DNA of 64,000 nucleotides from Terriglobus tenax (GTDB taxonomy: Bacteria; Acidobacteriota; Terriglobia; Terriglobales; Acidobacteriaceae), in the NCBI RefSeq assembly GCF_025685395.1, contig NZ_JAGSYA010000004.1, positions 310,001 through 374,000 on the forward strand, in the 5' to 3' direction. Below, one piece after another: positions 18,744 through 50,451 of the stretch. Below the pieces are notes generated by a model. That model searched no databases, was not told the origin of the DNA, and worked only from the letters and a program-made list of their open reading frames with translations. Made by a program: the position numbers and the translations under genes. Numbering within the stretch: the first letter of the stretch is position 1; every line of letters starts with the position of its first letter.

Positions 18744-18771
18744 TTGACAGACGCTTTTGTATTAGTAGAAC
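18744..18771 (+). promoter_or_regulatory. Candidate sigma-70 promoter of the glycosidase gene
   Basis: TTGACA (18744-18749, consensus -35) is followed after 16 bases by TAGAAC (18766-18771, four of six matches to the -10 box). The -10 hexamer lies inside the palindrome at 18765-18780, which is the layout expected of a repressible promoter. Confidence 0.5.
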
Positions 18772-18780
18772 ATATTCTAC
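18765..18780. promoter_or_regulatory. Palindromic operator GTAGAA-N4-TTCTAC, site 1
   Basis: Perfect inverted repeat GTAGAA CATA TTCTAC in the 113-base gap between the SGNH hydrolase (minus) and the glycosidase (plus). The same 12 fixed bases with the same 4-base spacer occur at 39507-39522, and a degenerate copy lies at 30709-30724. It overlaps the candidate -10 box of the glycosidase gene, 55 bases before its start codon. Confidence 0.7.
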
Positions 18781-18835
18781 ACATTAGAACTTAGTGCGCT
18801 CACACTCCCAGCGCGCCGATTGGCAGGTCTCTCAA

Positions 18836-21220
18836 ATGCGGATATTTGCATTCACCGTGTGTGCAATTTTTGCGTCAGCCATTGCCGCCCAGCAGCCTGT
18901 TGCTCCCGGTAAGGTAGTTGTGCCGTTGCGCATGGTCTCGCCTTCCATCGACGAACCCGGTAAGCCCTTCAGCTATGCGTCACGCTCAACGGACCAGATC
19001 TCCGTCATGCATGCAACAGCAGGGACCGAAATTACACCTGAAGGCTATCTCTACAGCGGCTACGGCGAACTGATGTTCTTCCTTGGCATTGATCGCCAGC
19101 CACTGTCGTCTCGCATCCGCACACTGGAAGAGGGCTATCTACCCATCGTGCATTACAGCCAGCAGCATGACGGCGTGGAATATCACTTCACGGCATTCGC
19201 CGCTTCGCTTGGCAAAGAACAGGATGGAACACATGTAGCCAACTTTGTTCGCGTGACGGTCAGCAATCCCTCATCAACATCGAAGCGCGCCTTCCTGACC
19301 ACAGCATGGCGCTATCAGGCGGAGCAGACCACGCCGTATCAGTCCGGCGATAACCGCTTTGAGCGGCCCGTGGAAGGCAAGCAGCCCGGCGATCCGCAAC
19401 AGCAAGGCGCCCCTTTCCGCGCCGATGCCAGCTATCGCACTGCAGACGACGCATACCTGCAGGACGGCAAGGCGATCTATCTGTTCCCTGCTGACTCCTC
19501 GCCCTTGTTGCGGCCATACTTCCGTGAGTTCTATAACCTGCTTGACCTGGGCCCGGTGGGCATCGCCACTACGCTGACTCCGTCAACGCCTGTGGCGACC
19601 GCGCAGTTCACCGTCAATCTGAAGCCCGGCGAAACCCGGGACCTCGACTTCAAGATGCCGCTTGCACCGCTGGCAGAGAACAGCGATGAGTTGGCCATTC
19701 TGAGGGCAAGCAGCTTCAATGAAAGAAAGCAACAGGTCGCGGACTTCTGGAAGAAGCTGCTGGATCGCGGCCTGGTGATTGAAACTCCGGAACGGAAGGT
19801 CAATGACACCTTCCGCACCAGCCTGGTGAACGACCTTCTCTCCCTGAACAAGGTTGGCAACCAGTATGTGCAGACCATCAATCAACTGCACTATCACGGC
19901 TTCTACCTGCGAGACTCGGCCGACTTTGTCCGCATGTATGACACATCCAGCTATCCCGAAATTGGACGTCAGGTTCTGGATTTCTTCGCGACCAAGCAGC
20001 GGGAGAACGGAAACTTCCTTTCCCAGGAGGGACAGTACGACGGATGGGGAGAAGCGTTATGGACCTATGGCGAGCACTATCGTATGACCCACGATAAAGC
20101 CTTCGCCGCGGAGGTCTACCCGCGTATTCTGCACGCTGTGCAGTGGCTGGAAGGCGCTCTCCAGAAAGAGCCGCTGCACATTATGCCGTCTACGGACGTC
20201 CGCGATAACGAGTTTGTCCCGGGACACCTGACCGGATACAACTTTCTGGCGCTGAACGGTCTGCAGTCCGCACAGATGTTTGCTCGTGAGCTAGGACATC
20301 CTGATGATGAGAAGCGTTTCCACCAACTGGAACTAAACCTGCGCACGGCCTTCATGGTTCAGCTCAGGAAGGCAAGCGAAGCTGCCGGAGGAAAGATCCC
20401 TCCCTCGCTTGATCCGGGAGCCGGCGGAACGGACTGGGGCAACCTGCTTTCGGTTACACCAGAGGAACAGCTGAATCCATTGGATCCGATGGTCACAGCG
20501 ACGCTGAAGGACACGCAGTCGCGCTACCAGGAAGGGATCATGACCTATCACCAGGATGGGCAGGGCGAGTACCTTCACCACTACCTGACGATCAAAAACA
20601 CGCTGACAGAGCTGGTGCGCGGCGAGGACCAGCAGGCGATCAGCGAACTCTATGCTGTGCTGCTGCACACAAGTTCCACAAACGCCGGCTTCGAGTATTC
20701 CATCCGGCCATGGGGTGACCGTGACTTCAGTGGCAATCTTGCTCCGCACGGCTGGTTCGCGGCGGAGTACCGTAACCTGCTGCGTAACATGATGGTGCGC
20801 GAGCGCGGCAATGAACTGCACCTGCTGTCTGCAGTATCCCCGGAGTGGATTGGCGAGGACAAATCCATCCGCGTGGAACGTGCCGCAACCTATTTCGGTT
20901 CCGTGAGCTTTACGCTGACTGGCACAGGCGCCAGCTCGGCAAGGCTGATCTATACCGTCGATGCAACGCAGAAGAACCGCCTCAAGCAGGTGGTGGCACA
21001 TCTTCCCTGGTTCCTTGATGGAGTAACGGCCACCGTTGATGACAGACCTGTTACCGTGACGAATCGTCAGCTTATCTTGCCCATAGGTTCCCATACGGTA
21101 GAGCTGCGTTGGCAGAAGCGGTCAATAGACGCAACGATGAGCTATGAGAAAATCGTCGACGCTTATAAGCAGGAGTATCGCCGCCGTTATGAAGAACAGA
21201 CCGGCTACGACGGGCGCTGA
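18836..21220 (+). CDS. Exported six-hairpin-type glycoside hydrolase
   Basis: 794 residues from ATG 18836, which begins a clean signal peptide (MRIFAFTVCAIFASAIAAQQ). A GTG at 18794 would bury that signal. Residues ~25-300 look like a beta-sandwich. Residues ~320-680 look like an (alpha/alpha)6 barrel of the six-hairpin glycosidase superfamily, with YHGFYLRDSADFVRMYD, SQEGQYDGWGEALWTYGEHY, GTDWGNLLSV and NAGFEYSIRPWGDRD. The last ~100 residues are a small beta domain. I cannot name the CAZy family or the catalytic residues with confidence. Its operator is shared with the sugar-acid locus. Confidence 0.75.
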   Translation: MRIFAFTVCAIFASAIAAQQPVAPGKVVVPLRMVSPSIDEPGKPFSYASRSTDQISVMHATAGTEITPEGYLYSGYGELMFFLGIDRQPLSSRIRTLEEGYLPIVHYSQQHDGVEYHFTAFAASLGKEQDGTHVANFVRVTVSNPSSTSKRAFLTTAWRYQAEQTTPYQSGDNRFERPVEGKQPGDPQQQGAPFRADASYRTADDAYLQDGKAIYLFPADSSPLLRPYFREFYNLLDLGPVGIATTLTPSTPVATAQFTVNLKPGETRDLDFKMPLAPLAENSDELAILRASSFNERKQQVADFWKKLLDRGLVIETPERKVNDTFRTSLVNDLLSLNKVGNQYVQTINQLHYHGFYLRDSADFVRMYDTSSYPEIGRQVLDFFATKQRENGNFLSQEGQYDGWGEALWTYGEHYRMTHDKAFAAEVYPRILHAVQWLEGALQKEPLHIMPSTDVRDNEFVPGHLTGYNFLALNGLQSAQMFARELGHPDDEKRFHQLELNLRTAFMVQLRKASEAAGGKIPPSLDPGAGGTDWGNLLSVTPEEQLNPLDPMVTATLKDTQSRYQEGIMTYHQDGQGEYLHHYLTIKNTLTELVRGEDQQAISELYAVLLHTSSTNAGFEYSIRPWGDRDFSGNLAPHGWFAAEYRNLLRNMMVRERGNELHLLSAVSPEWIGEDKSIRVERAATYFGSVSFTLTGTGASSARLIYTVDATQKNRLKQVVAHLPWFLDGVTATVDDRPVTVTNRQLILPIGSHTVELRWQKRSIDATMSYEKIVDAYKQEYRRRYEEQTGYDGR

Positions 21221-22298
21221 GCGCATTCTTTCACTGGATGTCTTCCGGGGACTCACCATGGCCTTTATGGTCCTGGTGGGTAACCCCGGCAGCAACGACA
21301 TCTATTCACAGCTTGACCATGCCCCGTGGCACGGCTGGACAATCACCGACCTTGTCTTCCCCACCTTCCTATGGATCGTAGGGTTTTCTGTACAGCTTTC
21401 TTTTACCCGGCAAGCAGAAAAGGGCCGCGCATGGTCTTCCATGATGGTGCCCATGGCCAAGCGTTGCCTGCTGCTCTTCGTGCTTGGAACTGGCATCTAT
21501 GCCATCTCTGACTGGCGCCTCGAGACCTTCCGCATCATGGGCGTGCTGCAGCGCATCGCCCTCTGCTCACTCGGTGTCAGTCTGCTTTTCCCTTTGCCGG
21601 CTCGCAAACAGCTTGCTGTACTGGCAGGCATTCTGACGACGTACGCCCTTGTATTGAAGCTGGTCCCCGCGCCTGGATACCTGCCGGGAGATTTGAGCGT
21701 CGAGGGAAACCTCGCACACTTCATTGACCGTATCATTCTTGGCCGGCATAACTACTCCGGCACAGTAACCTGGGACCCCGAAGGAATTCTTAGTACACTT
21801 CCTGCGCTGGCGACAACACTGTTCGGCATGCTGGCCGCACGCCTGCTGCAATGTAAAGGGGCTGCAGCCCTAAGGTTGATGCCTGCTAACGGCGTAGTCC
21901 TGTTCACGGCTGGCCTGCTGATGGATACCTGGCAACCGATTAATAAGAAGCTCTGGACGACAGCCTTCTGCCTGCTTTGCGCAGGAGTCGACTTCCTGAT
22001 CTTCTCATTGCTTTACTGGCTCATGGATCGGCACCGGCTCCGCCGCGGGCTCACCCTTCCCTTGGCCTTCGGACAGAATGCGCTCGCGATTTACCTGCTG
22101 TCAGAATGTACAGGCGCCATTCTTTATCGCATTCGTCTTGCAAGCGGCTTGTCCTGGCATGACGCTATCTTTCAGGCGTTGTTTGCTGGAAAGACAACAC
22201 CACGCACGGACTCACTTCTATTCGCTGTCTCATTCCTCGCCATTGTCACCGGGTTTGCACTGCTGGCTTATCGCAAACGCTGGATTCTTAAGTTGTAA
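21189..22298 (+). CDS. NagX-like membrane acyltransferase (heparan-alpha-glucosaminide N-acetyltransferase family)
   Basis: 369 residues from ATG 21189, overlapping the glycosidase end by 32 bases, so the two are probably translated together. The DUF1624/DUF5009 opening is present: RILSLDVFRGLTMAFMVLVGN, then HAPWHGWTITDLVFPTFLWIVG with the conserved histidine and aspartate. About ten membrane helices follow. Relatives move acetyl groups across the membrane onto glucosamine, or sit beside sugar-uptake genes as NagX. Pairing with a glycosidase and an SGNH esterase suggests work on an acylated amino sugar, but this is inference. The 3' end overlaps the convergent MFS gene by 11 bases. Confidence 0.8.
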   Translation: MKNRPATTGAERILSLDVFRGLTMAFMVLVGNPGSNDIYSQLDHAPWHGWTITDLVFPTFLWIVGFSVQLSFTRQAEKGRAWSSMMVPMAKRCLLLFVLGTGIYAISDWRLETFRIMGVLQRIALCSLGVSLLFPLPARKQLAVLAGILTTYALVLKLVPAPGYLPGDLSVEGNLAHFIDRIILGRHNYSGTVTWDPEGILSTLPALATTLFGMLAARLLQCKGAAALRLMPANGVVLFTAGLLMDTWQPINKKLWTTAFCLLCAGVDFLIFSLLYWLMDRHRLRRGLTLPLAFGQNALAIYLLSECTGAILYRIRLASGLSWHDAIFQALFAGKTTPRTDSLLFAVSFLAIVTGFALLAYRKRWILKL

Positions 22299-23523
22299 CC
22301 TGCGACCGCTTCGGTAACGCCACGATGGCCAATGCTCCAACGGCAGCAACCAGCACCACGCAGACAAGCGCCGGTGTATAGCTGCGTGAATGCTCCCGCA
22401 GCAACGCGATCAGGTATGGGAACCAGGTCTGAGCGATCGTATTCAGAGGCAGAATGATAGACATGGCGCGAGCCAGCGTGGAGATACCGAATTCTTCGGC
22501 CACCATCAGCGGAATCAGCATGTAATCCGCTCCCATCGCAATGCCGAACAGAACAGCAAAGAAGTACGGTACATGGGGAGGCTGCAGCATCAGCAATGGA
22601 ATCACTGTGGCCGCAGTAAGCGCGTAGCTGCCGATCATCACAAGCTTGGTGGAAAACCAGTCCGCCAACAGGCCAACTAACAGACGGCCTACCGTGCTCG
22701 AAACAAGAATCAGGATCGACGTTGTACGCCAGGCTGCATCAAGCTGCGTTCCTTTGGCAAAGCCAGCATCCAGGAAGATGAACTTCATATGCTGACTGAT
22801 GGCGCCGACGGACGCGATGGAGCAGATGCTTCCAATCAGCAGAAGCCAGAAGGTAAGGCGTCCCAGCAGACCATTGACGGTAAGCGCTTCAGAGAGCTTC
22901 TGCCTCTTGCTTTCTGGCTCGCCATCCATCGTCAGACCGCAGTCGCTTGGTTTGTCGCGTAGCACCAGCAGCACCAACGGCCAGCCCGCAAACATGATGG
23001 CAGCCAGCACCATCAGTGCGTAACGGTAGCCATGAGCTTCCGTCAGCGGCTTGACCAGGTAACTCCCAAGCGAGCCAACCACACCCACTCCCAGGTACAG
23101 GATGCCCATCGCGGTACCACGGCGCTTGCCAAACCAGTGCGAGACAATCAGTTGGTGTGGGATAGGACCTGAGGTGAGGTAGCCAATCGTGTACAGCGCC
23201 CACAGAAAGAAATAGAGAGCGAGCGATCCGTTCATCCAGGCGAAGCCGGCAAGCGATGCAGCCGTTGCAACTGTACCGAACAGAATCAGCTTGCGCTGAC
23301 TGAAGCGCGGCACCAGCACCGGACCAACCCAGATGGTCAGCAGCGCCGCAAGCGGAAAGCCCAGCGTGATCTGCGAACGGCTCCAGCCAAAGGAGCGCTG
23401 GAAGTAGTCGTAGAAGAAACTGACGTTGTAATAAGGAATGCCCTGGGCGATGCCGTATGTGACCGCAGCGGCCATGACGACCCACCAACCACGAAAGATG
23501 CGACTTCCCTTCTCCACGCCCAC
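22288..23523 (-). CDS. MFS transporter (oxalate/formate antiporter-like, OFA group)
   Basis: 411 residues with about 12 membrane helices. The opening FRGWWVVMAAAVTYGIAQGIPYY resembles monocarboxylate and oxalate/formate exchange carriers, and the loop after helix 2 has the usual basic residues (PRFSQRK). The central loop WFGKRRGTAMGI is also typical. It lies 6 bases after the PQQ dehydrogenase gene in the same operon, so it may carry the acid product or substrate of that periplasmic oxidation. The transported compound cannot be told from sequence. Confidence 0.85.
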   Translation of the reverse strand: MGVEKGSRIFRGWWVVMAAAVTYGIAQGIPYYNVSFFYDYFQRSFGWSRSQITLGFPLAALLTIWVGPVLVPRFSQRKLILFGTVATAASLAGFAWMNGSLALYFFLWALYTIGYLTSGPIPHQLIVSHWFGKRRGTAMGILYLGVGVVGSLGSYLVKPLTEAHGYRYALMVLAAIMFAGWPLVLLVLRDKPSDCGLTMDGEPESKRQKLSEALTVNGLLGRLTFWLLLIGSICSIASVGAISQHMKFIFLDAGFAKGTQLDAAWRTTSILILVSSTVGRLLVGLLADWFSTKLVMIGSYALTAATVIPLLMLQPPHVPYFFAVLFGIAMGADYMLIPLMVAEEFGISTLARAMSIILPLNTIAQTWFPYLIALLREHSRSYTPALVCVVLVAAVGALAIVALPKRSQVTT

Positions 23524-23529
23524 TCCTTC

Positions 23530-25128
23530 TTACTTGTCTGGCAACGTCCACGCGTAGACAACTCCGTCTACGCAGGTCAACAGATACTGTTTGCCGTCGA
23601 CCATGTAGGTCATCGGCGAGCTGTTCATGGTAGCTCCAAGGCGCTTATGCCATAGCACCTTACCATCTACGGGGTTCAGTCCTAGAACATTCCCATCCAG
23701 GTCGCCGGTGATGAGCAGGTTACCCGCCGTGGTAAGAATGCCCGGGAAGCCGAAACCTTCCCCACTCTCCCGACGCCATTTGACCTTGCCTGTCTCATAG
23801 TCAATCGCGATGGTGTAGTACTTCGAGTACAGGGCAATCGAACCGCCGCCCTGGTGATCTGCCGCGAGCCCATTCTCATCCAGCGCAAGGTACCAGAAGC
23901 TATATCCTTCGCGGCCCGTCACATAAAACAGCTTTGTCAGCGGGTCATAGCTGGGCGACATCCAGTCCGTGCCGCCAAAACCTGCGCTGGCCGTCAGCGC
24001 ACCATCTGGCTGCGGCTCATGCTGAGGATCGGGAATCGGACTTCCCTTGTCATCAATCCCTTTCGCCCAATCCTGCGTTACAAACGGAGCGGTCACCAGG
24101 TGCTCGCCGGTCTCGCGATCCAGCAGGAAGTAGTATCCGTTCCCGCTCGCCTGCGCCAGCAACTTACGTTGCTGTCCTTTGTACGGAGCGTCAAAAAGCA
24201 CCGGCGTCTGCACCGCATCCCAATCATGCGTGTCGTGCGGATTCGCCTGAAAATACCATTTCAACTTGCCCGTATCGGCATCCATGGCAAGAATCGTGTC
24301 GGTGAACAGGTTATTGCCCTTGCGAACCGGCCCTGCCAACACGGGGTGCGGATTCGCCGATCCCCAGTAGACCAGATTCAGATCAGGATCATACGTACCG
24401 CTCATCCACATGGCTCCGCCACCGCGCAACATGGTCTTTGTGTCGGGCCACGTCTCCGCCCCCGGAGCCCCAGTTGCACGTGGCGTACTGCTGGTCTGCC
24501 ATACCTGCCTGCCCGTCTCCCAGTTGTAGGCATGCACCGCGTGCGGTACATCCGCCTGGTCACCGGAGGTGCCCACCAGAAGCATGTCTTTTACTATCTG
24601 CGGCGCAAGAGAGATGTAGTAGCCAAACTTAACATCCGCTACCTCGATATCCCAAACCTGCTTGCCGGTGTGCGCATCGATGCAGACAAGATGTGCATCC
24701 GGCGTTCCGATATAGAGATGTCCCTTGTAGTATGCAGCGCCACGATTGCCAATATGGTTGCCTTCAGAAGGGCGCACAAACTCCCAGATTTTCGCGCCGG
24801 TCTTCGCATCAACGGCCCATACATGATCGGGCAGAGTCAGATAAAGAACGCCGTCAATCATCAACGGCGTTCCCTTCATCTGCGGTCCATGCGTTTGGAA
24901 GGCCCAGTTCAGCGTAAGAGAATGGATGTTCTTCTCATGAATCTGTTGCAGCGTGCTGAAGCGCTTACCGGACGAATCTCCATTGAAGGTCGTCCACTGA
25001 TCGCGTACAGCCGGCACGCTTCCCGTGGCAACCCCCTGCTGAGCAGGCGCCACCCCGGCTGCTGTCAACACCGTAAGCAGAACAATGCATCGCTTACTTG
25101 AGCGTTTCAAGATAGGCAAACAGATCAT
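23530..25128 (-). CDS. PQQ-dependent dehydrogenase, periplasmic beta-propeller
   Basis: 532 residues from ATG 25128, preceded by AAGG at a good distance and followed by a signal peptide ending near GVAPAQQG. The start overlaps the cytochrome gene by 35 bases. The quinoprotein eight-blade propeller is shown by repeated W-motif blades such as LTLNWAFQTHGPQ, VWAVDAKTGAKIWEF, YWGSANPHPVL and VLGLNPVDGKVLWHKRLG. Relatives oxidise alcohols or aldoses in the periplasm and pass electrons to cytochrome c. The adjoining cytochrome gene fits as electron acceptor. No PQQ synthesis genes are in the window, and the substrate is unknown. Confidence 0.88.
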   Translation of the reverse strand: MICLPILKRSSKRCIVLLTVLTAAGVAPAQQGVATGSVPAVRDQWTTFNGDSSGKRFSTLQQIHEKNIHSLTLNWAFQTHGPQMKGTPLMIDGVLYLTLPDHVWAVDAKTGAKIWEFVRPSEGNHIGNRGAAYYKGHLYIGTPDAHLVCIDAHTGKQVWDIEVADVKFGYYISLAPQIVKDMLLVGTSGDQADVPHAVHAYNWETGRQVWQTSSTPRATGAPGAETWPDTKTMLRGGGAMWMSGTYDPDLNLVYWGSANPHPVLAGPVRKGNNLFTDTILAMDADTGKLKWYFQANPHDTHDWDAVQTPVLFDAPYKGQQRKLLAQASGNGYYFLLDRETGEHLVTAPFVTQDWAKGIDDKGSPIPDPQHEPQPDGALTASAGFGGTDWMSPSYDPLTKLFYVTGREGYSFWYLALDENGLAADHQGGGSIALYSKYYTIAIDYETGKVKWRRESGEGFGFPGILTTAGNLLITGDLDGNVLGLNPVDGKVLWHKRLGATMNSSPMTYMVDGKQYLLTCVDGVVYAWTLPDK

Positions 25129-25906
25129 GGACATCCTTATTGGTGTACTTTCCGAGAAGCTCCAGATGACCGCCCAGGGGATCATGGATCGCGGCCTTTA
25201 CCTGGGAACGCTCCCAGGAGTGATACGCACCGTTTGCGTCAATCACGGCAATGTAGAAAGGGTCCGCGTGAGCGAGCGTCCCCTGCACCACGGTGCCGTC
25301 GCGAAGCGTTACCGTGGCGGTGGATGCTTTGCCGCGGGGATAAAGAATTTTCGCCTGAAGCTCCGTCGGCTGATAGCGGCTTGCAACTCCGGCCAGGTCT
25401 CCGGTTACAGAATGGCACTTCGTACAACCACCTTGGCCTTCGAAGTACTTCCTACCGGCAACGGCGTCGCCGCTGAGCAATTGTTTTAGCTGATATCCAC
25501 TCTTTGGTCCCGCAGTCTCACGACTGTCCGTTGCCAGAACACGCGCATGCAGATAAGCGACGATGTCCGATACCTGGGAAGTCGCAAGACTCGCAAACTG
25601 AGGCATGCCCTTATCGGGCCGGCCTTCACGCAGCACGCCGCCGATCAGGTCTCCATCCTTGTCATGGCGCACCAGAGACGAATCAATCAGGCTCGGCCCT
25701 GTTGTCGATCCTTTTGCTGTTGGACCATGGCAAAAGGCGCAGTTGGAGGTGAACAGCTTCTCCCCTCGCTGTACATTTTCGGCTGCCATGGGATTGCGGC
25801 CCGGGTCTTCCACGCCCGCATGGACGGACGAGAAAGATCCCGAAACCGCAGTAGCCAATATGACAGCGGCACTACAGAACAATCCGGCCGCCAACCATCG
25901 GAACAT
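25094..25906 (-). CDS. Di-haem cytochrome c, exported
   Basis: 270 residues from ATG 25906 (AGGAG upstream); the longer upstream frame is rejected. A signal or anchor helix spans residues 4-25. Two haem sites are seen, CAFCH at residues 56-60 and CTKCH at 161-165. A likely axial methionine is M101 in KGMPQF. No equally clear methionine follows the second site. The C-terminal region (YPRGKASTATVTLRDGTVVQGTL) is a small beta domain often found in cytochromes paired with PQQ enzymes. It lies between an aminotransferase gene (23 bases) and the PQQ dehydrogenase (overlap), and is probably the electron acceptor of that enzyme. Confidence 0.88.
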   Translation of the reverse strand: MFRWLAAGLFCSAAVILATAVSGSFSSVHAGVEDPGRNPMAAENVQRGEKLFTSNCAFCHGPTAKGSTTGPSLIDSSLVRHDKDGDLIGGVLREGRPDKGMPQFASLATSQVSDIVAYLHARVLATDSRETAGPKSGYQLKQLLSGDAVAGRKYFEGQGGCTKCHSVTGDLAGVASRYQPTELQAKILYPRGKASTATVTLRDGTVVQGTLAHADPFYIAVIDANGAYHSWERSQVKAAIHDPLGGHLELLGKYTNKDVHDLFAYLETLK

Positions 25907-25929
25907 ACCCAACTCCTGCAAACGTGTAG

Positions 25930-27267: not shown

Positions 27268-27305
27268 ACAACGAGTCCCTTCTGGATCGCCTGGGGAAGA
27301 AAGAA

Positions 27306-27331: not shown

Positions 27332-27344
27332 CAGGTAATTGTGA

Positions 27345-30699: not shown

Positions 30700-30724
30700 T
30701 TCTTACTAGTAGAATACGTTTTAT
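30700..30724. promoter_or_regulatory. Degenerate palindromic operator, site 2
   Basis: GTAGAATACGTTTTAT (30709-30724) matches GTAGAA-N4-TTCTAC at 10 of 12 fixed bases. Upstream, TTCTTA at 30700-30705 stands three bases from GTAGAA, the same spacing as the extra half-site TTCTAC before site 3. It lies in the divergent gap between TonB receptor 1 and the IclR gene at 30803, where an autoregulated IclR protein would be expected to bind. Confidence 0.55.
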
Positions 30725-30802
30725 TTTGTACACCAAGAATACACAAATTCCTCGCAGGCAGAACCTGTAATCTTCAAAAGAAAAATAGGTCCACGGAAAG
30801 AC

Positions 30803-31600: not shown

Positions 31601-31653
31601 CACGGATCCCTCTGGAACGTGTCTACGTTTCGTCTGCAACGCATCGTGTCGAC

Positions 31654-32415: not shown

Positions 32416-32419
32416 CGTT

Positions 32420-33583
32420 CTACCAGTCTGCCACCGAACCATCACGATGGTTATAAGCCATGGTGACTTCCGGCTGGAAGGGATACTTCGCTGCTTCCTT
32501 CTCGTTGATGTCGATACCCAGTCCCGGCTTGGTCGGCGCCGTGCACTGGCCGGCTTCCAGGGGAATGAACTCGGTCACAATATCGTTGCGCCACGGCACA
32601 TCCGCGCGCACCATCTCCTGGATCAGGTAGTTCGGTGTAGCGAAACCAACGTGCGTAGAAGATGCCGTGCTGACCGGACCCTGCGGATTGTGGCAGGCAA
32701 CCGAAATCTGGTAGGCCTCTGCCATCGCCGCAATACGGCGAGCCTCGCTGATACCACCGCAGTGCGAGACATCCGGCTGCACGATCGAGCAGCCACGCTT
32801 CTCAAACAGTTCACGGAACTCCCAGCGGCCGACCAGGCGCTCCCCGGTTGCGATAGGCATGGGGAGATGACGCGCGACCTCCACCAGTCCGTCAATGTGC
32901 TCGGGCCAGCAGGGCTCCTCATACCAGTACAGGTTATAGTCCACCAGCATGCGGCCGAACTGAATCGCAGCAGCAGGCGTACAACGCGCATGCAGGTCCA
33001 GCATGATGTCGAAATCGTCACCAACAGCATTGCGCATCGCCTCAACGCATTTTGCTGCGCGCTTCAGCGTTGATGCGCTCTCGATGTATTCCGACACCGG
33101 GATCGGCATGGCCTTCACTGCAGTGAAGCCCTTTTCCACGCTGATCTGAATCCGCTCGGCAAACTCGCTCGGATCAATCGTCTTATACATGTTTTCGAGC
33201 AGGCCGCCGCCCAGGTGGTCGTAGAAGCGAAGCGTATCGCGCACCGGCCCACCCAGAAGGTTGCAGACCGGTTCGCCCAGGGCCTTACCTTTGATGTCCC
33301 AAAGAGCCTGGTCAATGCCACTCATCGCCGAGTAGTTCGTGATGCCACCACGCCAGAAATACTGGCGATGCATAATCTGCCAGATGTGCTCAATGCGACG
33401 GGGGTCCTGGCCGATGAGCAACACGCTCAAATCTTCTACCGCGCCAACCACGCCTTTCGTCTTCCACTCAAGCGTCGCTTCGCCCCAACCATACAGGCCG
33501 GGCTGGTCTGTTTCTACCTTCACAAAAATCCAGTTGCGCATGCGAGCATTCACAACCAGGGTTGAAATCTTCGTAATCTTCAC
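32420..33583 (-). CDS. Enolase-superfamily sugar-acid dehydratase, D-galactonate dehydratase-like
   Basis: 387 residues from GTG 33583, overlapping the upstream stop in GTGA. Metal ligands D196 (LDLHA), E222 (WYEEP) and E248 (TGERL) are 26 residues apart. H198, D271 (VQPDVSH), H298 (CHNPQGP) and E323 follow. From family knowledge, D-galactonate dehydratase (DgoD) uses D183/H185, E209, E235, D258, H285 and E310, a constant offset of 13 throughout. The enzyme should therefore abstract a proton alpha to a sugar-acid carboxylate and remove water to give a 2-keto-3-deoxy acid. The stereochemistry of the substrate is not proven. It is cytoplasmic and part of the seven-gene operon. Confidence 0.85.
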   Translation of the reverse strand: MKITKISTLVVNARMRNWIFVKVETDQPGLYGWGEATLEWKTKGVVGAVEDLSVLLIGQDPRRIEHIWQIMHRQYFWRGGITNYSAMSGIDQALWDIKGKALGEPVCNLLGGPVRDTLRFYDHLGGGLLENMYKTIDPSEFAERIQISVEKGFTAVKAMPIPVSEYIESASTLKRAAKCVEAMRNAVGDDFDIMLDLHARCTPAAAIQFGRMLVDYNLYWYEEPCWPEHIDGLVEVARHLPMPIATGERLVGRWEFRELFEKRGCSIVQPDVSHCGGISEARRIAAMAEAYQISVACHNPQGPVSTASSTHVGFATPNYLIQEMVRADVPWRNDIVTEFIPLEAGQCTAPTKPGLGIDINEKEAAKYPFQPEVTMAYNHRDGSVADW

Positions 33584-34989
33584 ACGTGCCTCACTTCATC
33601 CAATAGTTCGTTCATTACTTTCAGCGTCGTCGCTACAACAACGTCCGCCGCATCTTCTGAGAAAGGTGTCGCCGCCACCTCGTACCCACCGGTCACATAC
33701 GCTTCTCGATCGGGGATATAGCCGAACCCGCCATTCGAATAGCCCGACACGAAGGTGAACGACGAAGGTGCCTGCTCTCGGATTCGTGTCCCAATTGATG
33801 AGAACGGCTCACCCGGCATGGAGACCAGGGCAATCTCCCCGATACAAATCACCTGTAACTGCCATGGTGTGTGTGTTTTTTCGCTGTAGAGATTTGCGTT
33901 GCCAAGCCGCCAGCCCATCTGCGTCGCGCGCGCCTGTAAACGGCGCATCTCCTCCGTCTTCCCTGCGATGCGCAACTCCTGTACCTGCGCCCACAACGTA
34001 TCCAGGTCAGCCGCAATCTTCTCTGCAGCTTCCTGTCTGCGAATGGGCAACTGCATCGCAAGCGAGCGAAACGCAAGCTTCGGTTGCACCTGCGGAAGCG
34101 ACTCATAGCTGTACTGCGCGATGTTCGCGCCGGATGGCATCACCGACTCAAAGCGTGCCGTCTGCGGTTGTGTGGCAAGTGCACCGGCAACAGCAGCCGC
34201 TGCCAGCCCAAGCTCATGACCAAGCTGGTGATAGATCGAAAGATCGCCCGTAAATCCACGACGCGGTCCAAGATCGCCTGCCGCGCCTTGCAAAAAGACG
34301 CACACGCCACCAATCTCACGCTCCACAGTCTGCCGCATCGGCCCGGGATAATCCGGAGAAAATCGTACATTCTGCCAGCCGCATGTCGTCGGATGACAGG
34401 CGTAGTGCACCACGCTGGCAAACGCCGCACCGTCTTCGCAATCAAACCGGATGACTCCAAGCGAGTGGTCCGCAGGAACATCTTCGTTGACTCCAACGAC
34501 AGTCCCGCCATCCGGCGCAACAACCCGGCGGTTGCGATTGATGAATGCCTGTCCCTTGCCCGCAGCAACACGCACCGGGACCATCTGCTGTAAAGCCTGC
34601 CATGCCGCACCGGCGATACGCAGCGGAAGACCCTCAAGATAGCTGATGGCCATATCCAGGCCATCGCCGATGTTCTTCAGGCGAAAGGTATTCGGCCCCG
34701 CATGAGTATGGCTGCAGGAGAACCGGATGGCATTCGCCGGTACACCGGTCAACTGCTCCACCGCAGTTACGATCTTCGTCGTCCAATCCGTATCGAAGCC
34801 AATCGCATCTGCGTCGATGATGAGCACACGCGTGTCGTCCTGCTGTAAGGCAAGCGCAGTAACGATCATGGGCATATCCGCACCCACACCACGCTCATGC
34901 GTCTGGGCTCCCCAACCTCCTTGCGGAGTTCCAGGGGCCGGCGTAATGTCACACCGGCCAACTCCGGCCAACAGTACGCTATTCTGCAT
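33580..34989 (-). CDS. Neutral/alkaline ceramidase N-terminal-domain protein, function unknown
   Basis: 469 residues from ATG 34989 (an alternative GTG stands at 34999). The start overlaps the IclR B stop by 11 bases. The fold signature is DITPAPGTPQGG near the N-terminus, CSHTHAGPNT (metal histidines), HYACHPTTCG, and QGAAGDLGPRRG. In true neutral ceramidase the nucleophilic serine lies in GDVSPN; here the equivalent is GDLGP with glycine, and the C-terminal domain is missing. It has no signal peptide, so a lipid-ceramide role is unlikely. A metal-dependent hydrolase acting on a sugar derivative is possible. I would not name a reaction. Confidence 0.75.
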   Translation of the reverse strand: MQNSVLLAGVGRCDITPAPGTPQGGWGAQTHERGVGADMPMIVTALALQQDDTRVLIIDADAIGFDTDWTTKIVTAVEQLTGVPANAIRFSCSHTHAGPNTFRLKNIGDGLDMAISYLEGLPLRIAGAAWQALQQMVPVRVAAGKGQAFINRNRRVVAPDGGTVVGVNEDVPADHSLGVIRFDCEDGAAFASVVHYACHPTTCGWQNVRFSPDYPGPMRQTVEREIGGVCVFLQGAAGDLGPRRGFTGDLSIYHQLGHELGLAAAAVAGALATQPQTARFESVMPSGANIAQYSYESLPQVQPKLAFRSLAMQLPIRRQEAAEKIAADLDTLWAQVQELRIAGKTEEMRRLQARATQMGWRLGNANLYSEKTHTPWQLQVICIGEIALVSMPGEPFSSIGTRIREQAPSSFTFVSGYSNGGFGYIPDREAYVTGGYEVAATPFSEDAADVVVATTLKVMNELLDEVRHV

Positions 34990-35758
34990 CGTCAACACCA
35001 CTCTGCAAACGTTCGGCGATAATCCGTGCGGTGTGATGCAACCGTGCCACCAGCGCGGGAATTAGGTTGTCGCGAATCTGCTGTGTTGTTCCAGAGACAC
35101 TCAGTGCCGCGAGAAATTCATTGCGAACACTGAACATGGGGACAGCAAGGCAGCGGATGTCCAGCTCTTCTTCCTGGTTATCCAGCGCATAGCCCTGCTC
35201 TGCCACGCGACGCAGTTCTTCCCGCAGCAGGCTGGTCATCGTGATGGTATTCCGGGTATAACGTGCAAAGACGCCGCGCGACAGAACCTTCGTACGGAAG
35301 CCCTCGGAGGCGTATCCCAACAATACTTTGCCAACCCCGGTGCAATGCAGGTTCGTCCGCTTACCCGGATACGTCTCCATGCTGACCAGTCCCGGCCCCT
35401 GTACTTTCTGGATATAGACAGCCTGTGTCTGATCAAGGATGGCGAGGTGGCTTGTCAGCAGTGTTTGCGTCGAAAACCGGCGCATTGGCCGCAGCGCGGC
35501 AACGGCCATACGATCCGGCCGCACAGCATCCCGGCCAAGCATGTATGCCTTGGTCGACAGCATGCAGTTGCGTTGCGAGGCATCGCGTGTCAGGTAGCCG
35601 CATCGCTCCAGCGTAAGAGCAATCGTGTGTGCCGTGCTGCGCGGAATCGCGAGCTTCCTGCTGAGATCAGCAATGTTCATACCGCTTTTTGCATAATCAA
35701 GAGCTTCGAGCATGGCGAACGCCCGCTCGACCGCTGGTACGCTCTTCGTCATTTGCAT
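34979..35758 (-). CDS. IclR-family transcriptional regulator B
   Basis: 259 residues. A winged helix lies at residues ~7-65 (NIADLSRKLAIPRSTAHTIALTLERCGYL). The effector domain has VYIQKVQGPGLVSMETYPGKRTNLHCTGVGKVLLGYAS, with C in place of the common A of the HxTAxGK region, and GYALDNQEEELDIRCLAVPMF. It lies inside the sugar-acid operon, 18 bases after the symporter gene, so it should be made together with the enzymes it may control. With IclR A 3.4 kb away there are two candidates for the GTAGAA-N4-TTCTAC palindrome; sequence alone does not decide between them. Confidence 0.88.
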   Translation of the reverse strand: MQMTKSVPAVERAFAMLEALDYAKSGMNIADLSRKLAIPRSTAHTIALTLERCGYLTRDASQRNCMLSTKAYMLGRDAVRPDRMAVAALRPMRRFSTQTLLTSHLAILDQTQAVYIQKVQGPGLVSMETYPGKRTNLHCTGVGKVLLGYASEGFRTKVLSRGVFARYTRNTITMTSLLREELRRVAEQGYALDNQEEELDIRCLAVPMFSVRNEFLAALSVSGTTQQIRDNLIPALVARLHHTARIIAERLQSGVDDAE

Positions 35759-35776
35759 TCGTTCTCCCTTCCCCCA

Positions 35777-37399
35777 CTAACCAATTGAGGTGTACGGACT
35801 ATGGAATTGAAACCACGTCATGTAGCTGTACAGCGCAAGTGCCGCGATCACGAGAAGAGCCCACCAGAGCATGGGACTTCGCAGACCACGATTCAACATC
35901 TGCTCCGCAGCTGGCAGCCGCAGATAGCTCTTGTTCCACACCACGGAATCCACAACCTCTTTGGGGGAAGGGCGGGTGCATAGCGATACAAGGAACATGA
36001 GAACCAGGCAACTTATCCAAACCAGGAACGTACGGTTTAGATAGTTGTTGTACGGGCGAAGCCACGATACATGGGGGAAAAGGATGTATTGAACGAAAGC
36101 GGTATACGGAAAACCGAAGAAAAGCACCGTCGTTGCAGCGGCCGATGTTGCGCGACGCCACATCACACCAAGCAGGAACACTACTGCGATCGGTGAAGCG
36201 ACCCACGCACCAACATCCTGGATCAGGTAAAAGACGCCATACTGTCCACGCGCCAGCCAGATCGATATGGCTACGGCGATCACCAGAATCACAAAGGAGC
36301 TAAGAGCACCAACACGAACCAGGTGTTTCTCACTTGCATTCGGTCGCACCAGCGGGCGGTACAAATCCATCGTGAAAACGGTGCTGGAAGAGTTGAGTAC
36401 CGACGCAAGATGTGACAGCAAAGCACTGGCAATACCGGCCATCACAATACCGCCAAGCCCCGCCGGAACGACTGCCCGTACCAGGCGAGGGTACGCTTCA
36501 TCCGGGTCAGCCAGACCCGGGAATAGCCTGTAAGCGACGATGCCGGGGACAACCACGAGAAACGGGATCACCAGCTTCATAAAGCCGGCGAAGATCACAC
36601 CGACGCGCGCATCCCATTCCGTGCGGGCGCCAAGACATCGCTGCACGATGAATTGGTTGGTGCAGTTGTACCAGATGCCAATCGATAGGAAGAGTGTGAA
36701 AACACCGAACCACGGATAGTTCGGATCAGTGGCCGGATACAGAATGCGGAACTTATGGGGTGCCGCATGCATCAGCGCCTGCATCCCCCCAACCTTATGA
36801 ACACCGGCAACCGCAACAATCGTGCCACCGATGGTCAACATCAGGAACTGAATAAAATCAGTCCACGCAACAGCCTTCAAACCGCCGTAGATCGTATAGC
36901 TGCCCGCAAGTACCGCTAACCCGATGGTGGTGTACATGGGGTCAATGCCGAACATGCCGTTCAACGCCTTCGCTCCGGCCAGAATCACAACCGCCATCTG
37001 TGCAACGATCCAAAGCACAAGGGACGCAACCGCGAACAGGTATCGACAGGTTTTATTGAAGCGCCGTTCCAGAAACTCCGGCATGGTGTAAACGCCACCG
37101 CGGAGGTAGTACGGAAGAAAGACCCAAAGCAGGACAGAGAGCGTGAACCAGTTTCCCCACTCCCACTGCGCTACAACAAAACCTACCGAATACGCAGCAC
37201 CGGCCATTCCGATGAAGTGTTCGGTGCTGATATTCGCGGCGATAATGGAACCGCCAATCGCGTACCAGGGCAGTTCTTCACCTGCAAGAAAGTAGCCGCG
37301 CGTACCCGAGGACGAGCGCCGCGCGACCCAAAGACCGAGGAGAACATTGAAGAGCAAATACGCTGTAAACACTACGCGATCTGCTATCGAACCAAACAT
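35777..37399 (-). CDS. Sodium:solute symporter (SSS family)
   Basis: 540 residues with 13-14 membrane helices. The SSS family shape is clear: FLAGEELPWYAIGGSIIAANISTEHFIG in helix 1 to 2, RRFNKTCRYLFAV, ASYTIYGGLKAVAWTDF-like segment near residue 170 (GSYTIYGGLKAVAWTD), and NQFIVQRCLGARTEWDAR. Relatives carry sugars, sugar acids or inositol into the cytoplasm with sodium. In this operon it is the obvious inner-membrane importer for the compound broken down by the dehydratase and lyase. It stands 38 bases after the DHDPS-family gene. Confidence 0.9.
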   Translation of the reverse strand: MFGSIADRVVFTAYLLFNVLLGLWVARRSSSGTRGYFLAGEELPWYAIGGSIIAANISTEHFIGMAGAAYSVGFVVAQWEWGNWFTLSVLLWVFLPYYLRGGVYTMPEFLERRFNKTCRYLFAVASLVLWIVAQMAVVILAGAKALNGMFGIDPMYTTIGLAVLAGSYTIYGGLKAVAWTDFIQFLMLTIGGTIVAVAGVHKVGGMQALMHAAPHKFRILYPATDPNYPWFGVFTLFLSIGIWYNCTNQFIVQRCLGARTEWDARVGVIFAGFMKLVIPFLVVVPGIVAYRLFPGLADPDEAYPRLVRAVVPAGLGGIVMAGIASALLSHLASVLNSSSTVFTMDLYRPLVRPNASEKHLVRVGALSSFVILVIAVAISIWLARGQYGVFYLIQDVGAWVASPIAVVFLLGVMWRRATSAAATTVLFFGFPYTAFVQYILFPHVSWLRPYNNYLNRTFLVWISCLVLMFLVSLCTRPSPKEVVDSVVWNKSYLRLPAAEQMLNRGLRSPMLWWALLVIAALALYSYMTWFQFHSPYTSIG

Positions 37400-37437
37400 T
37401 TTGCCTTCCCCGGTCGAAAAATTTTGCTGGCTGCTTC

Positions 37438-38475
37438 TTACGAGAGCCAGGAGTCGAGGTTCTGCTTCACAAAGCCATCATCCACAAGGTGCGGATATGC
37501 AGCGATCACGCGATCGATCTCTTCCATCTGCCCCGGGGAAAGCTCTTCCTTCGGATTCAGGCACCAGCGGCCCTGCATCAGGCCTTGCCTGCGTAGAACC
37601 TCGTGAATCCCCGCAATGCATCCGTGGAAGTGATTTGCAACATCGAAGATGGCCGCGTTCATATCGGTCACTTCTCCATTGCGGATCAACCACTGGTCAT
37701 CAATCGCTCCACCCTGGGCGACAACATCCTTGATCTCGCGATGCAGAGCCGCGGCACGCTCCGTCCACACAGCCCAGTGCCCCAGCAGACCGCCCTTCAT
37801 CCGGACAGTCTTGCCCCCATATTGAAACGGCGAAAGCAGGTCCAACACGATATGGTCATCGTTGCCGGTGTAGAGCGTAATCTCTTCGCTGCGTCCGCTG
37901 GCAATCACACCACGCAGTACGTCCTGCGTGGCATAGCGATGGAAGGGCGCGATCTTGATTGCAATCACGCTCTCAATCTCCGCGAACCTGCACCAGAACT
38001 CATACGGGAAGATGCGTCCACCCACCGCAGGCTGCAGGTAGAAACCGATGATTGGCATCACCGCGCCTATTGCCCGGACATGCGCCAGAATCTCATCGAC
38101 CGGCGCATCCCCCATGGCTGCAAGACTCAGCAAGGCAGCGTTGTAGCCAAGGTCGCTAGCAATCTTCGCCTCGGCCAACGCCTGATCTGTTTTGCCGCAG
38201 ACACCAGCGACCATGATCAAATCGCTGCCCTTCAATGTGTCCGCGGCAAGCTCCAGGACGGGCTGGTAGAGCCCATACTGCTTCTCTCGAATCTCGAACT
38301 GCGTGGAGTGCACCCCCACAGCTACACCGTCTGCTCCCGCAGCCCGGTAATAACGCGCAAGCGCCCGCTGATGGCGCTCATCCAGCTTGCGCTCTACCGT
38401 CAGAGCCAGAGGGTGGGCAGGGATCACGGCGCCCTGGCTTAGCTTCAACTTCCAGTTGGCCTTAGAAACGTCCAT
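37438..38475 (-). CDS. DHDPS/N-acetylneuraminate lyase-family aldolase-like enzyme
   Basis: 345 residues from ATG 38475, overlapping the upstream gene by 14 bases. It is a TIM-barrel class I lyase: the likely Schiff-base lysine is K174 in SVIAIKIAPF and the catalytic tyrosine Y146 in IIGFYLQPAVGGR. It is longer than typical DHDPS (about 290-300) and diverged, with GNDDHIVLDLL near residue 205. The 2-keto-3-deoxygluconate/galactonate aldolases and keto-deoxy-acid dehydratases belong to this family. Beside a galactonate-dehydratase-like gene it could split a 2-keto-3-deoxy acid to pyruvate and an aldehyde. Lysine synthesis is unlikely here. Confidence 0.78.
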   Translation of the reverse strand: MDVSKANWKLKLSQGAVIPAHPLALTVERKLDERHQRALARYYRAAGADGVAVGVHSTQFEIREKQYGLYQPVLELAADTLKGSDLIMVAGVCGKTDQALAEAKIASDLGYNAALLSLAAMGDAPVDEILAHVRAIGAVMPIIGFYLQPAVGGRIFPYEFWCRFAEIESVIAIKIAPFHRYATQDVLRGVIASGRSEEITLYTGNDDHIVLDLLSPFQYGGKTVRMKGGLLGHWAVWTERAAALHREIKDVVAQGGAIDDQWLIRNGEVTDMNAAIFDVANHFHGCIAGIHEVLRRQGLMQGRWCLNPKEELSPGQMEEIDRVIAAYPHLVDDGFVKQNLDSWLS

Positions 38476-39493
38476 CGCGACTCTCAAATTTGGTGGGTTT
38501 GCCCAGAGTTGTTCCGCCAATCTCAAGCCAGTCGGCGGTCATCTCAAACAGTTCGTCTTCGTTCAGCTCAGAAGGCCCCAGCAGCTCCGTGCACAGACGC
38601 GCATCACTCAGCAAAGCCGTGGGGGCTTCTTCGCCCTTGAAGCGCGGAGTTACACCGAAACGCTTCCCAAATTTTTCTGCCGCTTCACGGACTGAGATTG
38701 TCTTAAGACCAGTGACATTCAGAATCCGCGCCGGCGTTCTGCACAACGCAAACGAACGCAGGCAATAGGAATTCGCATCGCCCTGCCAGATCACATTGGC
38801 ATGGCCCGTGGTCACGTCAATCTCCACGCCGTCCTTCACCTTCTGGCCAATGTCGACCAGCACTCCATAACGAAGGTCAACCGCATAGTTCAGGCGATAG
38901 ATCAACGTGGGCGTTCCGTATGCATTTGCGAAGTACTCGAAAATCCGCTCGCGTCCCAGCGCCGACTGCGCGTACTCACCGCGAGGATCCGTCGGCGTCT
39001 GTTCATTCGCGCCAGGCTTGTCGACCGGCATAAACGGATAGACATTGCCTGTCGAGAACGCAACCATGCGCGAAGTGCGGAAGCGATTGGCCGCGAGTCC
39101 AGCCACCCAGACATTGGTTGCCCACGTCATCGGCTGGTCGCCAACAGAGCCAAACTTTCGGCCAGCCATAAAGACCACGTTCGCTGCATCCGGCATGCGG
39201 GCATAGCTTTCCGGATCAAGCAGGTCCGTCTCGATCAGGTCCACGCCATCACCGTGCGCACTGAAGACACCTTCCCGATCCTTGCGAACCACCGCAATGA
39301 CGCGATGCTTCACCCCTGCCTCCTGGATGGCGCGCTTCATACGCACCACCAGGCTTGGCCCCATCTTGCCGCCGGCGCCAAGCACCAGCACGTCACCGTT
39401 GAGCTGCATGGCTGCTGCAATGTCCGCGGCATTCGGGCGTGTGAGCCGTTCTTCAAGCTCTGCTTCGTTCTGAATTTTTTCTTCTAAGATCAC
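38462..39493 (-). CDS. NAD-dependent epimerase/dehydratase-fold protein with altered YxxxK motif
   Basis: 343 residues from GTG 39493; the first in-frame ATG is internal at residue 29. The extended-SDR Rossmann motif is GAGGKMG (residues 39-45) and the catalytic-serine strand is VAFSTGNVYP (~144-153). The active tyrosine is Y174 in GEYAQSALGRERIFEY, but the lysine expected four residues later is A178. It lies first in the seven-gene operon, with its start only 4 bases from the outer half-site of palindrome site 3 and no clear ribosome site, so translation may be leaderless. A dehydrogenase or epimerase acting on the sugar acid is possible; the altered motif makes the chemistry uncertain. Confidence 0.75.
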   Translation of the reverse strand: MILEEKIQNEAELEERLTRPNAADIAAAMQLNGDVLVLGAGGKMGPSLVVRMKRAIQEAGVKHRVIAVVRKDREGVFSAHGDGVDLIETDLLDPESYARMPDAANVVFMAGRKFGSVGDQPMTWATNVWVAGLAANRFRTSRMVAFSTGNVYPFMPVDKPGANEQTPTDPRGEYAQSALGRERIFEYFANAYGTPTLIYRLNYAVDLRYGVLVDIGQKVKDGVEIDVTTGHANVIWQGDANSYCLRSFALCRTPARILNVTGLKTISVREAAEKFGKRFGVTPRFKGEEAPTALLSDARLCTELLGPSELNEDELFEMTADWLEIGGTTLGKPTKFESRDGRF

Positions 39494-39497
39494 TGTG

Positions 39498-39522
39498 TTC
39501 TACTTGGTAGAATTTGTTCTAC
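39498..39522. promoter_or_regulatory. Palindromic operator with three half-sites, site 3
   Basis: TTCTAC (39498-39503), three bases, GTAGAA (39507-39512), four bases, TTCTAC (39517-39522). The inner pair repeats site 1 exactly in its 12 fixed bases and spacer length. It lies between the divergent arms of the sugar-acid locus. TACAAT at 39529-39534 is a good -10 box for the plus-strand arm, with TTGGTA at 39504-39509 as a weak -35 within the operator. A protein bound here would control all eleven genes. Confidence 0.75.
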
Positions 39523-47064: not shown

Positions 47065-47076
47065 TAGGAGGTTCGT

Positions 47077-50436: not shown

Positions 50437-50451
50437 CCCACGGGAGAAAAC

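What the first reader, a model, noticed from the sequence alone, without database searches (positions are those of the whole stretch)
18765..39522. A shared GTAGAA-N4-TTCTAC operator points to an undescribed carbohydrate regulon
The same palindrome with the same 4-base spacer is perfect at 18765-18780 and 39507-39522, and 10/12 at 30709-30724. All three are intergenic and lie between divergent genes for carbohydrate use. Twelve fixed bases are expected by chance about 0.004 times in 64 kb, so two exact copies in promoter gaps are unlikely to be random. Sites 2 and 3 also carry a third half-site at the same 3-base distance. Site 1 overlaps a TTGACA-N16-TAGAAC promoter. Two IclR genes (30803 and 34979) are candidates for the binding protein. 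Together this would link TonB receptor 1, the PQQ/cytochrome operon, the glycosidase/SGNH/NagX group and the eleven-gene sugar-acid locus.
Basis: partly seen in the sequence, partly recalled or inferred. Interest (0 to 1): 0.85.

Follow-up and report, generated by a model that had tools for sequence, protein, structure and literature searches.

The report
Conserved sugar-acid operator in acidobacteria
Three near-identical DNA switches in an acidobacterium's sugar-use gene cluster are real, recur in related bacteria that carry one particular regulator gene, and most likely let that regulator keep about twenty genes off until their food is present.

Summary
GTAGAA-N4-TTCTAC is perfect at 18765 and 39507 and 10/12 at 30709; the genome (4.36 Mb) has no other perfect copy. 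It behaves as a conserved operator: a profile built without the window ranks the three sites first (35.0, 32.5, 30.7; best of 20 simulated sequences 20.5), and aligned sites are 68-73% identical across genomes, flanks 23-35%. It tracks the IclR gene at 30803: of 398 family genomes, 6 of 7 with its orthologue have a site at one mismatch or less, against 16 of 391 without. The second IclR gene (34979) is missing from three genomes that keep sites. Promoter geometry (window: TTGACA-N17-TAAGGT, operator, epimerase start) suggests repression. Alternating three-box sites are an established IclR architecture (PMC8222616), so this is a new regulon of a known kind. Binding, sign of regulation and inducer are untested.

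The parts
18765..18789 (-). operator site 1 (TTCTAATGTGTAGAATATGTTCTAC), between SGNH esterase and the GH15-like gene; perfect palindrome plus third box
   Evidence: score 35.0; corresponding sites in G281, G349, G347
18744..18771 (+). TTGACA-N16-TAGAAC promoter-like element towards the GH15-like gene, its -10 inside the operator
   Evidence: exact TTGACA also near the corresponding sites of G281 and G349, not G347
30700..30724 (+). operator site 2 (TTCTTACTAGTAGAATACGTTTTAT), between TonB receptor 1 and IclR1 (autoregulation)
   Evidence: score 30.7; sites upstream of IclR1 in G281, G347, G338
39498..39522 (+). operator site 3 (TTCTACTTGGTAGAATTTGTTCTAC), between epimerase-like gene and metallo-hydrolase gene
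   Evidence: score 32.5; sites before the epimerase in G281, G349, G007, G338, G347
39536..39564 (-). TTGACA-N17-TAAGGT promoter towards the epimerase operon; operator 13 nt downstream of its -10
   Evidence: exact TTGACA at 6 of 6 site-3 promoters and at the epimerase promoter of G113
39529..39534 (+). TACAAT, -10-like, 6 nt right of operator 3, towards the metallo-hydrolase operon (G281: TATAGT at the same spacing)
   Evidence: sequence reading
30803..31600 (+). IclR1, proposed regulator
   Evidence: Pfam HTH_IclR + IclR_C; presence tracks the operator
34979..35758 (-). IclR2, probably a regulon member inside the epimerase operon, not the operator's main reader
   Evidence: no orthologue found in G007, G338 and G113, which keep sites
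17931..18722 (-). SGNH/GDSL esterase, divergent at site 1
18836..21220 (+). GH15-like glycosidase candidate (no Pfam match; weak TIGR01577); ATG 18836 taken as start
21144..22298 (+). NagX/HGSNAT-like acyltransferase
22288..23523 (-). MFS transporter
23530..25185 (-). PQQ-dependent dehydrogenase
25094..26017 (-). cytochrome c
25930..27267 (-). class-III aminotransferase (closest solved relatives: glutamate-1-semialdehyde aminomutases)
27345..30554 (-). TonB-dependent receptor 1 (start ATG 30554, before a signal-peptide-like stretch, is my reading)
   Evidence: sequence reading
31654..32445 (-). SDR dehydrogenase
32420..33583 (-). galactonate-dehydratase-family enzyme (NCBIfam cut-off passed)
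33580..35001 (-). neutral/alkaline-ceramidase-like protein
35777..37399 (-). sodium:solute symporter
37438..38526 (-). DHDPS/2-keto-3-deoxy-sugar-acid aldolase-like enzyme
38462..39493 (-). NAD-dependent epimerase/dehydrogenase, first gene of the site-3 minus-strand operon
39558..40469 (+). metallo-beta-lactamase-fold hydrolase (lactonase candidate; the ascorbate-6-phosphate lactonase model is far below its cut-off)
40466..41434 (+). GFO/IDH/MocA-like oxidoreductase
   Evidence: 21 bits, Pfam cut-off 24
41434..42489 (+). M20 peptidase/deacylase
42525..43370 (+). fumarylacetoacetate-hydrolase-family protein

Best explanation
The three sites are operators of the IclR-family regulator encoded at 30803 (IclR1). 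Each is a 25-bp element of three half-site boxes with alternating direction (TTCT, AGAA, TTCT, about one helical turn apart). IclR1 binds them as dimers or a tetramer, represses its own promoter and five further divergent transcription units (about twenty genes from 17931 to 43370), and lets go, or changes its mode of binding, when an intermediate of the pathway, probably a sugar acid or keto-sugar acid, binds its C-terminal domain. At the epimerase promoter the operator lies just downstream of the -10 box, at site 1 on top of it. Shown: the sites, their conservation, their confinement to these promoters in this genome, co-occurrence with IclR1, the promoter geometry at sites 1 and 3. Inferred: binding, repression, operon membership, inducer.
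For: A leave-one-genome-out profile puts the three window sites at ranks 1-3 and recovers sites above the best of 20 first-order Markov sequences in 6 of 6 other orthologous loci, including G113 which was never in the training set. Operator columns are 72/68/73% identical (sites 3/2/1) against 23-35% in the flanking 25-nt blocks. Of 398 family genomes, 6 of 7 with an IclR1 orthologue (57-80% identity) and 16 of 391 without one have a match at one mismatch or less (Fisher p 9.5e-8; the 398 of the two calls are taken to be the same draw). The four exact matches are all in IclR1 carriers. The carriers hold 13 such matches: 11 in the regulon cluster, one 35 kb from IclR1 in G113, one in an ORF of G281 about 40 kb away. 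The seventh carrier, G007, has its epimerase site at two mismatches, a level at which chance matches also occur. Beyond the family 3 of 5 orthologues have a site close upstream of the regulator gene (G559 32.0, G466 20.2, G516 14.8). Exact TTGACA within 70 nt on one given side of the operator at 11 of 22 sites, 1 of 22 on the other side, 218 of 27,000 random positions. The recognition-helix region is much alike among IclR1 orthologues and different in IclR2. Three-box sites are known for the IclR family (PMC8222616).
Against: No binding or expression data. Two of 5 extra-family orthologues (G615, G544) have no recognisable site in 20 kb although their recognition helices are similar. G007 keeps one site, at the epimerase, and has none before its IclR1 gene. 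Sites before IclR1 are weaker in G338 (16.0) and G349 (17.7). Sixteen genomes without IclR1 have a match at one mismatch, four of them in no ORF of 150 aa, among them G314 with a perfect palindrome. The palindrome is not enriched genome-wide at one mismatch. Box letters (TTCT, not TTYC) and the inner spacing (12 bp, not 13-14) depart a little from the published IclR consensus. The 15 training sites were picked by pattern, so their column counts are partly built in.
Confidence: 0.85

Rival explanations
1. IclR2 (34979), alone or together with IclR1, reads the operators.
For: IclR2 lies inside the cluster and is itself IclR family; orthologues sit in the same operon in G281, G349 and G347.
Against: G007, G338 and G113 keep operator sites without an IclR2 orthologue (none in the fetched loci; whole-genome search: G007 no match at 1e-30, best G338 31% and G113 34% identity, on other contigs). 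Its recognition helix differs. It is downstream in the operon of site 3.
Confidence: 0.12
2. IclR1 acts as an activator or dual regulator at some of these sites, as described in print for part of the IclR family, rather than as a simple repressor.
For: The IclR family holds repressors, activators and dual regulators (PMC8222616 section 4). At site 2 no TTGACA promoter was found on the side used at sites 1 and 3, so its geometry differs.
Against: At site 3 the operator lies 13-19 nt downstream of the best -10-like hexamer in all six genomes, and at site 1 it covers the -10 in the window and G349, places where a bound protein would block RNA polymerase.
Confidence: 0.25
3. Chance or duplicated DNA: the palindromes are coincidental, or copies of one mobile repeat.
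For: The palindrome with up to two mismatches is not very rare in 64 kb (3 of 100 shuffles reach three), and it is not enriched genome-wide at one mismatch.
Against: Conservation in position and sequence across genomes with diverged flanks, held-out profile scores well above simulated sequence, flanks of the three window sites unlike each other by eye.
Confidence: 0.02

Closest known systems
IclR-family three-box binding sites (32 orthologous groups; Suvorova and Gelfand 2021, PMC8222616)
   Same: Three boxes of alternating direction; the outer pair spans 15 bp as in TTYCRYW3RYGRAA; sugar and sugar-acid genes are frequent targets of parts of the family; regulation of own gene and nearby operons.
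   Different: Box is TTCT rather than TTYC; the inner pair AGAA-N4-TTCT is 12 bp, one shorter than the shortest GRAACA-N1-2-TGTTYC; the paper's taxonomic table has no Acidobacteria row (supplements not read).
PcaU, PobR and HmgR operators (as cited in PMC8222616)
   Same: [quoted passage not shown] for PcaU the extra box is reported as needed for binding.
   Different: Different box letters and aromatic-compound genes; IclR1 scores 129.1 bits against a PcaR/PcaU/PobR cut-off of 284.75.
KdgR of gamma-proteobacteria
   Same: IclR family, controls pectin/galacturonate use genes (PMC8222616 Table 1); effector a keto-deoxy sugar acid (recalled, from no call).
   Different: Single A/T-rich palindrome RWWGAAACGNCGTTTCAKKA (PMC8222616 Table 1); IclR1 scores 129.3 bits against a cut-off of 275.

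Membership tests
IclR family of transcription factors | N-terminal HTH_IclR and C-terminal IclR_C domains, about 250 aa | tested here: met
   HTH_IclR 2.2e-12, IclR_C 2.7e-37, 265 aa
IclR three-box operators | three boxes with alternating direction | tested here: met
   counts over 15 pattern-picked sites: first box TTC 15 of 15 and T 14; middle box AGAA 14-15 of 15; last box TT 15, C 11, T 15 of 15; paper
IclR three-box operators | one pair of boxes fits group 1, GKTYCRYW3-4RYGRAMC | tested here: inconclusive
   spacing identical to the W3 form (15 bp from TT to AA) but the fourth box letter is T, not C
IclR three-box operators | the other pair fits group 2, TGRAACAN1-2TGTTYCA | tested here: not met
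   inner pair AGAA-N4-TTCT is 12 bp where the consensus gives 13-14
Named IclR equivalogs (BhcR, KdgR, PcaR/PcaU/PobR, IclR, AllR) | score above the curated NCBIfam cut-off | tested here: not met
   best 151.4 against 350 (BhcR); 129.3 against 275 (KdgR); 129.1 against 284.75 (PcaR/PcaU/PobR); 111.9 against 380 (IclR); 81 against 406 (AllR)
IclR family regulon | the regulator binds the operator | not testable with these tools
   needs gel shift or footprint

The most novel reading that the evidence does not exclude
The operator is two overlapping dimer sites that share the middle box (TTCTNCTNAGNAGAA and AGAATNNRTTCT), so that IclR1 switches between two dimer arrangements on one 25-bp element when the inducer binds, controlling a whole uptake-to-catabolism cluster for an as yet unknown carbohydrate of acidobacteria.
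Probability: 0.25. Interest if true: 0.6.

Novelty: new member of a known kind. Interest (0 to 1): 0.42.

Why it matters
It gives a candidate regulator, a 25-bp operator and about twenty target genes for a carbohydrate cluster in a bacterial family where my paper searches (listings only) showed no IclR regulon. It joins genes that homology alone would not (ceramidase-like protein, GH15-like enzyme, PQQ dehydrogenase, TonB receptor, sugar-acid enzymes) into one pathway, and the conserved core (epimerase plus aldolase-like enzyme) says where to look for the inducer. The shared middle box makes the published suggestion of alternative IclR dimers testable on a compact site.

Tried and rejected
Rejected: chance or repeat DNA. 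Rejected as main reader: IclR2. Left open: the substrate. The GH15-like protein has no Pfam hit and no solved relative by sequence and its model was poor (mean pLDDT 44), so I made no fold search with it. The aldolase-like enzyme modelled at mean pLDDT 62.7 matches the DHDPS/N-acetylneuraminate-lyase/keto-deoxy-arabonate-dehydratase superfamily at 13-21% identity in the 50 rows shown, which does not fix its substrate. The ORF test for 'intergenic' is weak here: 7 of the 16 distinct regulon-type sites in loci L102-L130 also lie in mechanical ORFs of 150 aa or more. Of the 16 IclR1-negative matches, 11 lie in such ORFs, 4 do not, and one (L143) could not be classed because the locus is cut off. 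No IclR gene was found near them (1e-3), and of the regulon and neighbour proteins only that of 45563 had a hit, in L142. In one search the tables show only the best of overlapping hits, which is why the epimerase is missing from some lists; one search confirms the G113 epimerase (45% identity). Paper searches: (PcaU) empty; one E. coli paper; empty; twenty-one papers, eight listed, none of the eight with the word acidobacteria; led to PMC8222616.
Full report
Check of the observation. The palindrome GTAGAA-N4-TTCTAC is perfect at 18765-18780 and 39507-39522 and has two mismatches at 30709-30724. At 58% GC, 0.0017 perfect copies are expected in 64 kb and 0.12 in the genome. The whole 4,359,123-base genome holds exactly two, both in this window. 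With one mismatch there are ten more places, nine of them inside ORFs of at least 150 aa, and the pattern read backwards is commoner than the pattern itself (32 against 12 matches per strand), so there is no genome-wide enrichment. Site 2 taken alone as a two-mismatch palindrome is not significant; its case rests on conservation.

The real element is longer. Read with the third half-site it is TTCT-N5-GTAGAA-N4-TTCTAY, 25 bp. Site 1 has it too, on the other side: TTCTAATGTGTAGAATATGTTCTAC on the minus strand, 18765-18789. In this genome the 25-bp pattern with up to two mismatches occurs only at the three window sites (five matches, two being the same palindromes from the other strand).

Conservation. 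A search for the IclR protein at 30803 (IclR1) in 398 genomes of the family found matches at 1e-40 or better in seven, including this genome: G007 (77% identity, same genus), G281 (80%), G349 (70%), G338 (69%), G347 (67%) and G113 (57%). I fetched 37-40 kb around each, plus 20 kb more of G113. Large parts of the cluster are kept, and the operator recurs at matching promoters: between the epimerase and the metallo-hydrolase or oxidoreductase genes in 5 of 5 relatives with that junction (G281, G349, G007, G338, G347), and before the epimerase in the rearranged locus of G113 (epimerase identity 45%); upstream of IclR1 in G281, G347 and G338 (G349 weaker, G007 none); and before the GH15-like/NagX genes, or NagX alone, in G349, G347 and G281.

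A profile was built from 15 sites and tested by leaving out one genome at a time. With the window left out, the three window sites score 35.0, 32.5 and 30.7; the next place not overlapping them scores 16.4, and the best of 20 first-order Markov sequences 20.5. Held-out sites score 27.5 in G007, 21.8-35.6 in G281, 26.9 and 32.8 in G349, 27.0 and 16.0 in G338 and 24.0-28.2 in G347, against maxima of 12.3-17.3 in simulated sequence for those loci. G113, never in the training set, gives 30.7, 26.8 and 26.0 (simulated maximum 18.9), and a fourth site of 35.4 lies 35 kb from its IclR1. Mean pairwise identity in the 25 operator columns is 0.72 (site 3, six genomes), 0.68 (site 2, four) and 0.73 (site 1, four), against 0.23-0.35 in the adjacent 25-nt blocks. 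The site-2 set leaves out G349 (weak site) and G007 (none); the site-1 set leaves out G007 and G338, where none was found; G113 is in none of the three sets.

Which regulator. At one mismatch or less the 25-bp pattern is found in 22 of 398 family genomes: 6 of the 7 with IclR1 and 16 of the 391 without (p 9.5e-8; searches are assumed to have drawn the same 398). The four exact matches are all in IclR1 carriers. Of 13 matches in the six carriers, 11 lie in the regulon cluster, one is the G113 site 35 kb from IclR1, and one (G281, about 40 kb away) lies in an ORF and is probably chance. The seventh carrier, G007, has its epimerase site at two mismatches, a level at which the reversed-pattern control also gives 0-3 matches per strand. 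Near the 16 matches without IclR1 no IclR gene was found; 11 of them lie in ORFs of 150 aa or more, 4 do not, one was not classed. G314 has a perfect palindrome with nothing from the regulon in 20 kb, which I take as chance or a relic.

Beyond the family, a profile search of 299 genomes of the class (family members included) found five further orthologues. G559 (46% identity) has a 32.0 site 56 nt before the regulator gene, G466 (61%) a 20.2 site 19 nt before it, and G516 a 14.8 site that abuts the likely start codon, the next best in its 3-kb locus being 4.2. G615 and G544 (45% each) have none. IclR2 has orthologues in the cluster of G281, G349 and G347; G007, G338 and G113 keep operators without one. 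The recognition-helix region is much alike in IclR1 orthologues and different in IclR2. So IclR1 is the best candidate, and IclR2 is probably one of its targets.

Mechanism. At site 3 each of six genomes has exact TTGACA on the same side of the operator. In five a -10-like hexamer follows after 17 bases (TAAGGT twice, TAACGT, TAATGT, TATTGT); in G281 the program's best hexamer is at 16 bases (TCTAAC), and TAACGT lies at 18 by my reading. The operator starts 13-19 nt after the hexamer, and the epimerase start follows. The epimerase promoter of G113 has TTGACA-N16-TATGAT, then the operator 14 nt on. Over all 22 sites examined, exact TTGACA lies within 70 nt on that side at 11, on the other side at 1, and at 218 of 27,000 random positions (the random positions include coding DNA, so the one of 22 on the other side is the fairer control). 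At site 1 the operator covers the -10 of TTGACA-N16-TAGAAC. These are repressor positions. Site 2 shows no such promoter, so autoregulation may work differently. The consensus TTCTNCTNAGTAGAATNNRTTCTAY holds two overlapping palindromes sharing the middle box, of 15 and 12 bp, with centres 9.5 bp apart.

What the regulon does. The three sites lie between six transcription units, about twenty genes from 17931 to 43370: SGNH esterase; GH15-like enzyme and NagX-like acyltransferase; TonB receptor, aminotransferase, cytochrome c, PQQ dehydrogenase and MFS transporter; IclR1; epimerase, aldolase-like enzyme, sodium symporter, IclR2, ceramidase-like protein, galactonate-dehydratase-family enzyme and SDR; metallo-hydrolase, oxidoreductase, M20 and FAA-hydrolase-family proteins. 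Operon membership is inferred from direction and spacing. The dehydratase passes the NCBIfam cut-off for galactonate dehydratase (366.1 against 311 bits), and the aldolase-like protein matches pyruvate-dependent lyases in fold and weakly in sequence (a model of middling confidence). I infer uptake of an oligosaccharide, oxidation to an aldonate, dehydration to a 2-keto-3-deoxy acid and cleavage. The sugar itself is unknown. The part kept with a site in every family carrier examined is the epimerase and the aldolase-like gene.

Comparison with what is known. A study of 1,340 IclR-family regulators (PMC8222616; I saw the abstract, sections 4, 13, 14 and 15 and found passages) describes two palindrome types and three-box sites of alternating direction in 32 orthologous groups, and names PcaU, PobR and HmgR as earlier cases. 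The present site has that architecture: the outer pair has the spacing of group 1, the inner pair is one base shorter than group 2, and the box reads TTCT. The paper's taxonomic table has no Acidobacteria row; its supplementary tables were not read. IclR1 is far below the named equivalog cut-offs. My searches for an acidobacterial IclR regulon (listings only, 8 of 21 shown) showed none in the held library, which lacks most subscription journals. I file it as a new member of a known kind.

Limits. There are no binding, expression or effector data here. Several orthologues come from draft or metagenome-assembled genomes. Chance matches occur in about 4% of genomes at one mismatch. Two of five distant orthologues lack a site.

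Noticed in passing
32420-33583: The galactonate-dehydratase-family enzyme is 98% identical to its G281 orthologue (89-91% in G349, G338, G347) while the other cluster proteins are 50-87% identical between the window and G281, so it is under unusual constraint or was exchanged recently.
   Followed up: no
L080:13884-15722: A protein of about 600 aa with a Tat-like signal and no Pfam family sits next to IclR1 in G281, G349 and G347 (60% identity to both), with an operator at its promoter in G349 and G347. It is not in the window's cluster: a likely regulon member lost here.
   Followed up: partly
43408-56449: Next to the regulon lies a second carbohydrate cluster (two-component system, TonB receptor 2, alginate-lyase-family protein, GH2) without an operator among the window's top sites, so it is probably controlled separately.
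   Followed up: partly
45563-46867: A 434-aa protein without Pfam match has relatives in G338 (34-40% identity) and in L142 (33%); in G338 they lie near TonB-receptor genes.
   Followed up: no
L160:9610-9625: G314, in which no IclR1 was found, has a perfect GTAGAACTAATTCTAC in no ORF of 150 aa and no regulon gene in 20 kb: chance, relic, or another regulator with the same taste.
   Followed up: partly
L158:4737-10951: In G559 (another family) the IclR1 orthologue with the best distant operator lies downstream of two GH123-family genes and a TPR protein, so the regulator may serve a different glycan there.
   Followed up: no
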